Shown here piece by piece: positions 6,345-10,206 of a DNA stretch of 64,000 nt. Made by a program: the position numbers and the translations under genes. The stretch is from the IMG/VR virus record IMGVR_UViG_3300035703_000088, positions 1 to 64,000 of that record; one strand, given 5' to 3'. Within the stretch, counting starts at the first letter, position 1. Every line of letters begins with the position of its first letter. A model generated the notes under the pieces. It worked only from the letters and a program-made list of their open reading frames with translations, searched no databases and had not been told where the DNA came from. This DNA comes from a virus.

Positions 6345-6562
6345 AGACCGCCCTCGTTCTCCTAGCCCTGCTACTCGGTCTCTACACCTGCGCTGGTGCA
6401 GATGAGAAAGCCGAGTGCGACATCTCTTTCCACGCCGATGGAACGTGGTCTCCCGTAGGTTGGGACCCTTTCTTTGACGGTTACGGAAACTGTCAACTAC
6501 CCACCGAGTACGGTGGCCACCCAGTCATAGTTCAGAACAACCAAACATGGAGGTACGCATGA
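6341..6562 (+). CDS. Small exported protein with signal peptide, 73 aa
   Basis: The GTG at 6341 gives MKTALVLLALLLGLYTCAGA, a Lys followed by a long hydrophobic core and a small-residue cleavage region: a convincing signal peptide. The Cys at 17 is not in a standard lipobox (LYTC), so lipid anchoring is uncertain. The mature part is about 50 residues with two further cysteines and aromatic residues. The start overlaps the previous TGA, and the stop overlaps the next ATG. An envelope or superinfection role is inference only. Confidence 0.6.
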   Translation: MKTALVLLALLLGLYTCAGADEKAECDISFHADGTWSPVGWDPFFDGYGNCQLPTEYGGHPVIVQNNQTWRYA

Positions 6563-8781
6563 GCAAGATCAATCTTTCTCCCGAAGCAAAGCGCCGACTT
6601 CAGAATGAGCGTCGTCGGATGTCCCGTGAGGCAGGCAAGCAGGCTGAGCGTGAGTTTGAGAACGCACTCCTCGCCATTCACAACTCGGCAAACACCCACA
6701 AGAGGGCTGGGGAGCACGTTGCACAGGTTGCGTTGATTCGCAACCTGCTGTCACTGTGCCGTGCGGTGAACGCATCGTTCGGAGTCGCCGTGCCCGTACG
6801 CATTGACGCCAAAGAGGTCGGTCGCCGTAATCCCAAGTGGACTCCTGAGGAGTGGCTGTCTGCCCAGTACGAGAACGTGGGTGTCAGCGGTCGCACCGAC
6901 ATGAAACAGATTGATGTGACGTACCCGCTGTGGCGCACCGCCGAGGAGGGTGTCCCGTTGTACACCGTGGACACTCAGCACTTGGTGGACCTCATCTCGG
7001 ACATCAAGGCGCTCCAGTACCACGAGTTGGGTCACATCCTCTTCACGCTCCCGATTCGTACCCTGACGGACGGCTTGACCGACGAGTGGGTGGCTAAGCG
7101 TCCCGAGTTGGGGTTCAACGATGCTTATGCGGTGCGTGTGCAGACCGGAGCGATCATGCGTGCGTGGAACATCTTGGAGGACCAGCGCATGGAAACTGCG
7201 CTCGTTCACGAGTCGCCGTACATCGCTCGGTACCTCACCAAACTGATCTTGCGCTACATGATCAAGTCCGAGTGGATAAGTGAGGGAACCCAACGCCACG
7301 ACGAGCGGGGCGAGGCGTTCCAGTACTTCCTCGTTGTCAACCGGCGCTACTTGCCCCTATCGGTGCGCTCCAAGGCTCGTAGCCTCGCCATCGCTGAACT
7401 CACGGAGCCTGTTGTCGTTGAGGCTGAACAGATCATCCGTGAGTACTGCTCGGCAAACAACGAGGACGGCATCCTGACGGCGACGCTGAAGTTCTACCGG
7501 CTCCTGAACAACCTTGGGGTTGTGGCTCCCACGATGGACAGCCATCCGTCATGGGGCAAGCCGAAGTACGCACCGTGGGAGTCGGCTGACTCCACGCAGG
7601 AGCAGGCGCAGGACCAACTGATGGTCACCGTCCCAGCGGAAGACTCCGAGGGTAAGGACAAGCAGGTCAGCAAGTCCAAGAAGACGACCGAGTCCGAGAA
7701 GTCGGATGACTCAGCGCCTGACGGTAACTCCAACGGTAACTCTAAGGACGATGGGTCCAAGGACGAATCCGAGAGCACCGGCTCGGGCGACGAGGACGAG
7801 GACGAGGACGAGGACGAGGACGAGGACGAGGACGAGTCCGACGAGTCCGACAAGGCTGGTGACAGCGGGTCCGATGAGACTGGCGACGACAGCGATACGG
7901 ATGCCGGTGGCGCTGGCATTGGTAACGACGAAAGCGATCAGACCAAGAGCACCTCGGTTGACGAAGCCATCAAGGATGCGTTGGGTGATGTGTCCAAGGA
8001 GTTGTCGCAGGACGCTGACATTGAAGAGACCATCAGGTCAATCAATGCAGACCTCAACAAGGACGGCACCATGCTTCTTGAGCCCGAGCAGGGCAAGGGT
8101 GGCACGGTGACCGGCGAGGCGCTGGCTCAAGCCGAGGAAGTCGCTTCACGGCTCGCACGGTCGTTTGACTCGGCTGTCAGTTCCGCACAGCCCGTGTGGG
8201 AAGAGGGGCATCGCACTGGTGCGGTCAATGCGTTTCGTTATCGCACCCGCACCGCTGGCGATCACAACTACCGGCGCACGCTCTCGTCCGAAGGCAACAC
8301 CGGACTGGACATCGCTGTCAGCCTCATGCTGGACATCTCGGGGTCAATGCACGACTACGAGGACCGGCTGAGTCAATCAGCGTACGCCGTGAAGTTGGCG
8401 TGCGACCAAGTTGGTATCGCCTGCACGGTGACCACCTTCAACTCGCAGTCCTTTGAGTTGTACCGCCGAGAGGACACCAATGTCGTCCCCTTGGCGCTCA
8501 ACACGGGTGGCGGTACAAACCCAACCGGCGCTCTGCGTGTGCTGGACTCCCAGCGAGAGGGTGAGAAGTACCACCTCGTGATAGTCCTGACCGATGGTCA
8601 GTGGCATCAGGCAGTCCTCCCTGAAGTGCAGAAGCAGTTCCGAGATGGTCGTGTCTTCTTGGGGGTCTCGCTGGGGGATGAATACCTCAACGAGATGGAA
8701 CTGCACTCCACGGTGACCATCAAGACCATTGAAGACCTGCCTGAGGTCGTGAGGAACTTTCTTCTCATCTTTCTCGGGTAA
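6559..8781 (+). CDS. Zincin-like/VWA-domain protein (CobT-like partner of a MoxR ATPase)
   Basis: This 740-residue protein has three parts. An N-terminal domain carries HELGH (155-159), an HExxH zinc-protease motif, followed by NILEDQRMET, resembling the second-helix ED/R pattern of VWA-linked zincins. An acidic low-complexity linker at about 370-460 includes eight tandem GACGAG codon pairs (7789-7836). A C-terminal von Willebrand A domain has the MIDAS motif DISGSMHDYED near 590 and TDGQW later. CobT-like and related VWA proteins act with MoxR/CobS AAA+ ATPases, and exactly such an ATPase follows. GGAGGTACGC precedes ATG 6559, which overlaps the upstream stop codon. Whether it is an active peptidase or a metal-insertion or remodelling chaperone is open. 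Confidence 0.88.
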   Translation: MSKINLSPEAKRRLQNERRRMSREAGKQAEREFENALLAIHNSANTHKRAGEHVAQVALIRNLLSLCRAVNASFGVAVPVRIDAKEVGRRNPKWTPEEWLSAQYENVGVSGRTDMKQIDVTYPLWRTAEEGVPLYTVDTQHLVDLISDIKALQYHELGHILFTLPIRTLTDGLTDEWVAKRPELGFNDAYAVRVQTGAIMRAWNILEDQRMETALVHESPYIARYLTKLILRYMIKSEWISEGTQRHDERGEAFQYFLVVNRRYLPLSVRSKARSLAIAELTEPVVVEAEQIIREYCSANNEDGILTATLKFYRLLNNLGVVAPTMDSHPSWGKPKYAPWESADSTQEQAQDQLMVTVPAEDSEGKDKQVSKSKKTTESEKSDDSAPDGNSNGNSKDDGSKDESESTGSGDEDEDEDEDEDEDEDESDESDKAGDSGSDETGDDSDTDAGGAGIGNDESDQTKSTSVDEAIKDALGDVSKELSQDADIEETIRSINADLNKDGTMLLEPEQGKGGTVTGEALAQAEEVASRLARSFDSAVSSAQPVWEEGHRTGAVNAFRYRTRTAGDHNYRRTLSSEGNTGLDIAVSLMLDISGSMHDYEDRLSQSAYAVKLACDQVGIACTVTTFNSQSFELYRREDTNVVPLALNTGGGTNPTGALRVLDSQREGEKYHLVIVLTDGQWHQAVLPEVQKQFRDGRVFLGVSLGDEYLNEMELHSTVTIKTIEDLPEVVRNFLLIFLG

Positions 8782-8816
8782 CACGTTGCGTCTCCTAAAT
8801 GGGGGCGCTACTATCT

Positions 8817-8858: not shown

Positions 8859-8875
8859 TGTCCCGTTACGGGACA
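8859..8875 (+). repeat. Palindromic 17-mer box, copy 7 (core only)
   Basis: This is the invariant TGTCCCGTTACGGGACA with no G/C-tract flanks (CAC before, CCA after). It lies just downstream of an independent hairpin. It shows that the 17-mer is conserved without the long stem. Confidence 0.85.
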
Positions 8876-8931
8876 CCAACCAATCAAACCACCAACCACC
8901 AACCACCAACCACACAAGAAAGAGAACCACC

Positions 8932-10206
8932 ATGGCAAAGATCAGTGACCTCCGTATCGGAGGCGAGTACGAAGTGACCGCCAAGAAGGCCAAGGCCGTC
9001 AATGCACGCTTGCTGGACGGCACGCCCGTGAGCATCCCCGTTGGAGAGCGGGTGGTCGTGAAGACCACCACCGTTGAGGCTGACGGCACGCAGTTCGCTC
9101 GGTGCATCAAGGCTGAGCGCATCTCGGGCGAGTTCGTGTACCTCCTGCCCAAGTTGTTGTCGGACGGCACCATCGTGACCCCGAGCGTCGTGGTCCCCGC
9201 CACTATCACGCAAAGCGCCCCGATTGCTCCGGTTGAAGTGAAGCCCATCGTGGATGCGATGGATGTCCGGTTGGACCCCTACCGCCCCAACCCCGAGTTG
9301 GTGAAGCAGTATGTGTCCCGCAAGTTGTTCGGCTCCATCAAGGACACCGACCTCCTGCTCCACTACTGGCGTGACCGTAACTCTGATGGTTACTCCAGCA
9401 ACGTCCTGCTGGTCGGTGACACGCAGGCTGGCAAGACTCTGCTCGTGCAGGTCCTCGCCATCCTCGTCGCCAAGGAACTCGGGTACCCGAAGCCCTTGCC
9501 GGTGTTCACCCTCAGCGGTTCGGCTGGCGTGTCCGACCTTGACCTCTTCGGTCAGTCGGTGGCGCACATCGGACCCGATGGCGTGGAGCGCCTCGTGTTC
9601 CTCAACGGCATCGTGGAACTCGCCAGCAAGGTGGCGTGCATCCTGTACTTGGATGAGATCAACATGATGCCCGAGCGGGTTACTTCAACCCTCCACCCCG
9701 TGGCTGACGACCGACGCTCGTTCGTCAACCGTCAGCGTGCGGTGGATGCCGAGGGCGAGTACCTCATGGCGCAGACCAAGATGCACAAGGACTGCTGGGT
9801 GATTGGCACGATGAACCCCCCGGGTTACCGTGGCACCTCGCCCCTGAACGAGGCGTTTGCGAACCGCTTCACGAAGCGTATCCCGTGGGGTTACGACCGT
9901 GATGTGGAGACCAAGTTGCTGGGTTCACCGGCCCTCGTCCTGCTGGGCGAGTCGCTTCGTGAGGCTCGCCGTCTTGGCTCGCTCACCACGCCGGTCGGCA
10001 CGAAGTTGCTGATGGACCTGAAGCGTGACGTTGACACCCTCGGTGTGGACGTTGCCCTCGGTGTCTTCAGCGGGTTCTTTGACGACCGTGAGCGCACCAA
10101 GGTGGAAGCCATCCTCATGGACAAGTCCATCAAGACGTTCCTCGCTGAAGAGCGAGAGGGCACGGCTCCTCAGCCTGAACAGCAGGAGTCCCCAGTTCCT
10201 CAGTGA
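8932..10206 (+). CDS. MoxR/CobS-type AAA+ ATPase
   Basis: This 424-residue protein has Walker A GDTQAGKT (about 162-169), Walker B ILYLDEIN (about 237-244), a sensor segment IGTMNPPGYRGTSPL (about 291-305) and an arginine-finger-like NRFTKRI. The order and wording fit the MoxR/CobS branch of AAA+ proteins, which pair with VWA/CobT proteins to remodel targets or drive metal insertion. The N-terminal 110 residues are a Lys/Val-rich beta domain of unknown role. A 150-base gap with a hairpin, box copy 7, a CAACC leader and AAAGAGAACCACC separates it from its presumed partner. Confidence 0.9.
   Translation: MAKISDLRIGGEYEVTAKKAKAVNARLLDGTPVSIPVGERVVVKTTTVEADGTQFARCIKAERISGEFVYLLPKLLSDGTIVTPSVVVPATITQSAPIAPVEVKPIVDAMDVRLDPYRPNPELVKQYVSRKLFGSIKDTDLLLHYWRDRNSDGYSSNVLLVGDTQAGKTLLVQVLAILVAKELGYPKPLPVFTLSGSAGVSDLDLFGQSVAHIGPDGVERLVFLNGIVELASKVACILYLDEINMMPERVTSTLHPVADDRRSFVNRQRAVDAEGEYLMAQTKMHKDCWVIGTMNPPGYRGTSPLNEAFANRFTKRIPWGYDRDVETKLLGSPALVLLGESLREARRLGSLTTPVGTKLLMDLKRDVDTLGVDVALGVFSGFFDDRERTKVEAILMDKSIKTFLAEEREGTAPQPEQQESPVPQ

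What the first reader, a model, noticed from the sequence alone, without database searches (positions are those of the whole stretch)
6559..10206. Phage-encoded zincin/VWA protein plus MoxR-type AAA+ ATPase
The 740-residue protein joins an HELGH zinc-protease-like motif, an acidic linker and a VWA domain with an intact MIDAS, and is followed by a MoxR/CobS-type ATPase. In bacteria MoxR-VWA pairs assemble or mature other complexes, and CobST inserts metal. Cyanophages carry cobS, but a full zincin-VWA-ATPase set in an actinophage-like genome is not one I know. It could cleave or remodel a host or virion protein.
Basis: partly seen in the sequence, partly recalled or inferred. Interest (0 to 1): 0.8.

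Follow-up and report, generated by a model that had tools for sequence, protein, structure and literature searches.

The report
Phage zinc-protease-like protein with AAA+ motor
This actinobacteriophage carries a gene pair, a zinc-protease-like protein with a grip domain and the ring-shaped ATP motor that probably drives it, which is widespread in phages, archaeal viruses and conjugative plasmids; it is often labelled a vitamin-B12 enzyme, and its true target is unknown.

Summary
ORF 6559-8781 (740 aa) has HELGH (155-159), LEDQRME (206-212), an acidic linker and a VWA domain with intact MIDAS; ORF 8932-10206 is an intact MoxR-type AAA+ ATPase. AlphaFold puts HELGH and the likely third ligand E207 in confident helices. 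The pair is not unique: all 80 relatives kept from viral contigs have an adjacent ATPase, and HExxH, E207 and the MIDAS are essentially invariant in 66 non-redundant sequences. Iyer et al. 2021 already described a MoxR plus metallopeptidase-vWA pair in jumbo phages; others call it CobST. What I add: (1) the ATPase resembles CbbQ/NorQ/GvpN more than CobS; (2) cellular CobT lacks HExxH, yet its N-terminal domain connects to the phage domain through bacterial HExxH proteins that pass Pfam's CobT cut-off, so CobT looks like a degenerate zincin; (3) conjugative plasmids (IncC, IncHI2) carry the same HExxH-VWA plus ATPase although they make no virions. Best reading: an ATP-driven remodelling metallopeptidase from the early/replication region of mobile elements, not a cobaltochelatase and probably not a dedicated virion-assembly factor. 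Zinc binding, proteolysis, complex formation and substrate are all unproven.

The parts
6559..8781 (+). zincin-like + acidic linker + VWA protein, 740 aa
   Evidence: ORF and RBS; relatives in 80 viral loci; AF2 mean pLDDT 81
7021..7035 (+). HELGH, residues 155-159, in predicted helix 139-162
   Evidence: H155, E156, H159 conserved 66/66; helix
7174..7194 (+). LEDQRME, residues 206-212; E207 is the proposed third zinc ligand
   Evidence: L206, E207, R210 conserved 66/66; in predicted helix 196-218; liganding itself not measured
7549..7953 (+). acidic disordered linker, residues 331-465
   Evidence: 47/135 D/E; pLDDT under 50 over most of it
8116..8778 (+). VWA domain and its leading part, residues 520-740
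   Evidence: structural matches to Rea1/MDN1 MIDAS domains and NorD VWA, Z 17-19
8332..8346 (+). MIDAS DxSxS, residues 592-596 (with T653 at 8515-8517 and D679 at 8593-8595)
   Evidence: conserved 66/66 (T653 65/66)
8932..10206 (+). MoxR-class AAA+ ATPase, CbbQ/NorQ/GvpN-like, with an about 110-aa N-terminal beta domain
   Evidence: AAA_5; CbbQ Z 24, NorQ Z 22; AF2 pLDDT 90
9415..9438 (+). Walker A GDTQAGKT, residues 162-169
   Evidence: sequence
8858..8876 (.). intergenic palindrome cTGTCCCGTTACGGGACAc between the two genes, one of nine copies; possible operator

Best explanation
The two genes encode a two-part machine. The ATPase forms a MoxR-type ring (by analogy with NorQ and CbbQ). The VWA domain of the 740-aa protein docks on the ring and, through its MIDAS, grips an acidic residue of a target protein (by analogy with NorD and CbbO). 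The N-terminal zincin domain, tethered by the acidic linker, then cleaves, or less likely only binds, the target that the motor has loosened. It acts inside the infected cell as part of the early/replication-region toolkit of a mobile element, on a host or DNA-metabolism protein rather than as a cobaltochelatase or a dedicated virion-assembly factor. Shown: the motifs, their near-invariance, strict gene pairing, relation to NorQD/CbbQO/midasin/CobT, and occurrence in phages, archaeal viruses and conjugative plasmids. Inferred: complex formation, zinc binding, proteolysis, and the kind of target.
For: Invariant HExxH, E207 and MIDAS in 66 relatives, independent of the search pattern. ATPase adjacent in all loci. 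HExxH and E207 in confident helices preceded by three strands. ATPase closest to CbbQ/NorQ by profile and fold; VWA closest to Rea1/MDN1 MIDAS and NorD by fold; NorQD is an established AAA+/VWA remodelling machine (PMC13036017, PMC9976466). The pair lies outside the structural module: here on the + strand with a SNF2 helicase, an HTH protein and a pyrimidine-dimer glycosylase while head and tail genes are on the - strand; between DnaB/primase and DnaE in Gordonia and Brevibacterium phages; among gp46/47 and gp44/45 in Syn9. The same HExxH-VWA with an ATPase and DUF3150 is in conjugative plasmids, in IncC next to ssb-bet-exo.
Against: No biochemistry. In this sub-family, carriers of 60 kb or more have a tail sheath in 26 of 29 against 6 of 27 random contigs, which could mean a virion role. 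CobT and NorD act in metal insertion, so the zinc site could be non-proteolytic. No target is identified.
Confidence: 0.55

Rival explanations
1. Virion-assembly chaperone-protease: the machine folds or trims structural proteins, as proposed for jumbo phages and by analogy with p618/p892 of Acidianus two-tailed virus.
For: Published proposal (PMC7824862). 26/29 pair carriers of at least 60 kb have a tail sheath against 6/27 random contigs, Fisher p 4e-7; the window itself is a contractile-tailed phage.
Against: Non-contractile phages GMA2, GMA3, GMA7 and HVTV-1 carry HExxH-VWA and ATPase with no sheath found. Conjugative plasmids carry the pair and make no virions. Genes sit outside structural modules. 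The carriers are related, so the sheath association may be shared ancestry.
Confidence: 0.2
2. CobST cobaltochelatase subunits (auxiliary metabolic genes) that team with host CobN to raise cobalamin synthesis.
For: Published for archaeal viruses and cyanophages (PMC8651126). The A3 profile matches CobT of PDB 9uka over linker and VWA, E 6.6e-13; 7/58 ATPases hit TIGR01650 and 5/59 VWA proteins hit TIGR01651 weakly.
Against: The window proteins hit neither CobS nor CobT models. The ATPase is closer to CbbQ/NorQ (132-137 bits) than CobS (64 bits). Genuine CobT lacks HExxH while the phage family keeps it invariantly. No ORF long enough for CobN in the window. Only 2/29 carriers have a recognisable ribonucleotide reductase large subunit, Syn9 and one weak hit, so there is no link to a phage B12-dependent reductase. 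Plasmid versions occur in E. coli, which lacks de novo corrin synthesis (host fact from general knowledge).
Confidence: 0.08
3. Metal-insertion or remodelling chaperone in which the zinc site is structural or binds the target without cleavage, a NorQD/CbbQO analogue.
For: Closest ATPases and VWA domains belong to NorQD and CbbQO, which remodel without proteolysis (PMC13036017). CobT shows that the N-terminal domain can work without the HExxH.
Against: The catalytic-type glutamate E156 is invariant with both histidines in 66/66, which a purely structural zinc site would not need.
Confidence: 0.15

Closest known systems
MoxR AAA+ and metallopeptidase-vWA pair of jumbo phages (group 2.2), Iyer et al. 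2021, PMC7824862
   Same: adjacent MoxR ATPase and vWA protein with an N-terminal metallopeptidase domain in tailed phages
   Different: described in jumbo phages with a virion-assembly proposal; this is a roughly 65-kb actinophage contig with the vWA gene upstream of the ATPase. The named example phage was not matched by my profiles in the record I tried (Atu_ph07), so direct homology to the cited proteins is untested
Phage and archaeal-virus CobST (Gordonia 'CobT-like', cyanophage 'peptidase' and CobS, HVTV-1)
   Same: same gene pair and domain order, detectable homology
   Different: annotation as cobaltochelatase is not supported here; the HExxH is intact
Cobaltochelatase CobT/CobS
   Same: VWA (hhalign 98%, E 1e-13), acidic linker, and an N-terminal domain homologous through intermediates
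   Different: CobT lost HExxH; the ATPase is not closest to CobS
NorQ/NorD and CbbQ/CbbO
   Same: closest ATPase by sequence and fold (Z 22-24); NorD VWA among the closest VWA folds (Z 17)
   Different: NorD and CbbO are not described as having an HExxH zincin N-terminal domain
Conjugative plasmid/ICE VWA + AAA + DUF3150 genes (IncC, IncHI2)
   Same: HExxH, MIDAS and a homologous ATPase
   Different: a DUF3150 gene lies between or near them; no DUF3150 was recognised beside the phage pair

Membership tests
MoxR AAA+ / VWA pair | MoxR-class AAA+ with intact Walker A/B | tested here: met
MoxR AAA+ / VWA pair | adjacent VWA protein with intact MIDAS | tested here: met
MoxR AAA+ / VWA pair | physical complex, VWA finger in the ATPase pore | not testable with these tools
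   no complex prediction available
Zincin metallopeptidase | HExxH in a helix plus a third ligand in a following helix | tested here: met
   helices 139-162 and 196-218, conserved H155/E156/H159/E207; ligand distances not measured
Zincin metallopeptidase | structural match to a solved zincin | tested here: inconclusive
   fold searches dominated by the VWA domain
Zincin metallopeptidase | zinc binding and peptide cleavage | not testable with these tools
   needs the bench
CobT | match to PF06213, PF11775 or TIGR01651 | tested here: not met
   no hit for the window protein; 10/59 relatives hit CobT_C and 5/59 TIGR01651 at E 0.01
CobT | N-terminal domain without HExxH, as in 19 cellular CobT examined | tested here: not met
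CobS | match to TIGR01650 | tested here: not met
   no hit for the window protein
CobNST cobaltochelatase | CobN partner | tested here: not met
   no ORF over 926 aa in the window; a host CobN cannot be excluded
Virion-assembly MoxR-VWA (ATV p618/p892 type) | required for virion assembly | not testable with these tools
   indirect: sheath association, contradicted by plasmids and non-contractile phages

The most novel reading that the evidence does not exclude
An AAA+/VWA-driven metallopeptidase is a shared takeover or DNA-metabolism factor of phages, archaeal tailed viruses and conjugative plasmids, and the N-terminal domain of cobaltochelatase CobT descends from this zincin by loss of its catalytic site, so much of what is recorded as viral 'cobST' vitamin-B12 metabolism is really a protein-remodelling protease.
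Probability: 0.35. Interest if true: 0.8.

Novelty: new member of a known kind. Interest (0 to 1): 0.5.

Why it matters
Viral cobS/cobT genes are counted in metagenomic studies as vitamin-B12 auxiliary metabolic genes. If the viral 'CobT' is an active-site-intact zincin and the ATPase is CbbQ/NorQ-like, that reading is probably wrong for many of them. The same module in IncC and IncHI2 resistance plasmids gives an easy system in which to find out what it does, and the link to CobT would explain what CobT's N-terminal domain is.

Tried and rejected
A single-protein scan of viral contigs found nothing, so an alignment was used. The bacterial genome scan with the phage alignment found only two MAG contigs. 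Direct profile comparison of phage and CobT N-terminal domains is not significant (0.2% and 5%); homology rests on the intermediates. PF04984 missed most sheaths (15/49), so phrog_23 was used. DUF2201_N (PF13203) gave no hit in window proteins or in the two MAG genomes. Microbacterium phage Pumpernickel has a related ATPase but the next gene is not a VWA protein. Foldseek/VIA searches of the whole model did not reveal a zincin, because the VWA domain fills the list; this is not evidence against one. Agrobacterium phage Atu_ph07 gave no match. Thermus phage P74-26 keeps VWA and ATPase but no HExxH, so the zincin site is not universal in the wider viral family.

Full report
What is there. The window is 64000 of the 65459 bases of an IMG/VR virus contig of a contractile-tailed phage (sheath, baseplate, portal and major head genes on the - strand) whose two WhiB genes point to an actinobacterial host. 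On the + strand, ORF 6559-8781 and ORF 8932-10206 encode the reported pair. HELGH is at residues 155-159, LEDQRME at 206-212, the acidic linker at 331-465, and the MIDAS at D592, S594, S596, T653 and D679; the ATPase has intact Walker A and B.

Conservation. An alignment-based scan of viral contigs found 131 relatives and kept 80. Every one has a homologous ATPase gene next to the VWA gene, in the order ATPase-VWA in most, VWA-ATPase in the window's own clade, divergent in a few. In 66 non-redundant proteins HExxH, L206, E207, R210 and the MIDAS residues are invariant or nearly so, while the distance from HExxH to E207 varies from 24 to 82 residues. Both motifs were used as search patterns; the 30 proteins not matched by the HE pattern still all have HExxH, and the 16 not matched by the LED pattern all have that motif. 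In close relatives the AAA module is the most conserved part (97% to L015), then VWA (80%), zincin (72%) and linker (50%).

Fold. AlphaFold2 on 59 aligned sequences gave pLDDT above 90 over most of residues 10-320 and the VWA domain. HELGH lies in helix 139-162 after three strands, E207 in helix 196-218. This is the expected order of a minimal zincin, but no coordinates were available to measure the site. The VWA matches Rea1/MDN1 MIDAS domains and NorD (Z 17-19), and the ATPase matches CbbQ and NorQ (Z 22-24). By profile search the ATPase scores midasin and CbbQ/NorQ far above CobS, and GvpN is the commonest NCBIfam hit (35/58).

Relation to CobT. Nineteen cellular CobT sequences from Pseudomonadota keep EQARVEA but have no HExxH at that site (PDB CobT). 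The direct profile comparison of N-terminal domains fails. However, four divergent bacterial proteins picked up by the Pfam CobT model (L518, L519, L521, L522) have HExxH and an ED.R.E motif; L518 and L519 exceed Pfam's CobT cut-off over the whole N-terminal domain. They align to the phage domain with 98.95% probability and to the CobT domain with 95.4% over 182 columns. So the CobT N-terminal domain is most simply a degenerate zincin. The direction (loss in CobT) is inferred from the wider spread of HExxH; no rooted tree was built.

Mobile-element distribution. Those bacterial proteins lie in element-like regions with SSB, YqaJ recombinase, DUF3150 and primase-like genes. A relative is found in 2329 plasmid records, 1928 of them typed conjugative; 1016 cover at least 80% of the query, the rest are partial, often VWA only. 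The IncC, IncHI2 and Pseudomonas plasmid copies examined all have HExxH and MIDAS, with a homologous ATPase and DUF3150 nearby; in IncC they lie next to ssb, bet and an exonuclease gene. Haloarchaeal virus HVTV-1 and Gordonia phages GMA2, GMA3 and GMA7 also have HExxH, and in HHTV-2 the motif is in a separate ORF; Thermus phage P74-26 has lost it.

Function. Two published ideas exist. Iyer et al. (PMC7824862) propose virion assembly with processing; Liu et al. (PMC8651126) propose CobST and say that cobT is often mistakenly annotated as a peptidase. For the first, carriers of 60 kb or more have a tail sheath in 26/29 against 6/27 random viral contigs of that size (Fisher p 4e-7), but relatedness is not corrected for, and non-contractile phages and plasmids carry the pair too. 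For the second, the window proteins fail the CobS and CobT models, the ATPase is of another sub-family, no CobN-length ORF is present, only 2/29 carriers have a ribonucleotide reductase hit, and plasmid copies occur in E. coli. The gene neighbourhood is replication/early type in all annotated cases. I therefore favour an early-region AAA+/VWA remodelling metallopeptidase against a host or DNA-metabolism protein; the target is unknown.

Confidence. Presence of the motifs and pairing: near certain. MoxR/VWA machine: about 0.9. Zinc-dependent proteolysis: about 0.6. Non-virion, non-cobalamin role: about 0.65. The combined best explanation is given 0.55.

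Noticed in passing
window 410-428, 976-994, 1331-1349, 3018-3036, 4028-4046, 5828-5846, 8858-8876, 11655-11673, 16538-16556: Nine perfect intergenic palindromes with core TGTCCC-GTWAC-GGGACA (0.04 expected by chance). Syntenic relatives keep the arms but have a phage-specific centre shared by nearly all copies in that phage (L015 ACCGT, L016 GASTC, L017/L018 ACSGT), and one copy always lies between the VWA and ATPase genes. This looks like an operator with phage-specific, immunity-like specificity, or an RNA hairpin.
   Followed up: partly
window 8815-8850: A second G+C-rich stem-loop (CTCCCCGCC ... 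GGCGGGGAG) between the VWA and ATPase genes, terminator-like without a T run; a similar one lies near 10238-10275 after the ATPase gene.
   Followed up: no
window 15037-15438 (-) and 17192-17596 (-): Two WhiB transcription factor genes (Pfam Whib).
   Followed up: partly
window 17850-19268 (-): Queuine tRNA-ribosyltransferase-like protein (phrog_887), conserved beside the pair in 43 of 80 relatives; could point to 7-deazaguanine DNA modification.
   Followed up: no
window 14096-14512 (+): Pyrimidine-dimer DNA glycosylase (T4 endonuclease V family), with homologs near the pair in 33 of 80 relatives.
   Followed up: no
L535 786-8779: IncC plasmid module AAA ATPase - ssb - bet - exonuclease - DUF3150 - HExxH-VWA: phage-like recombination genes beside the same machine.
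   Followed up: partly
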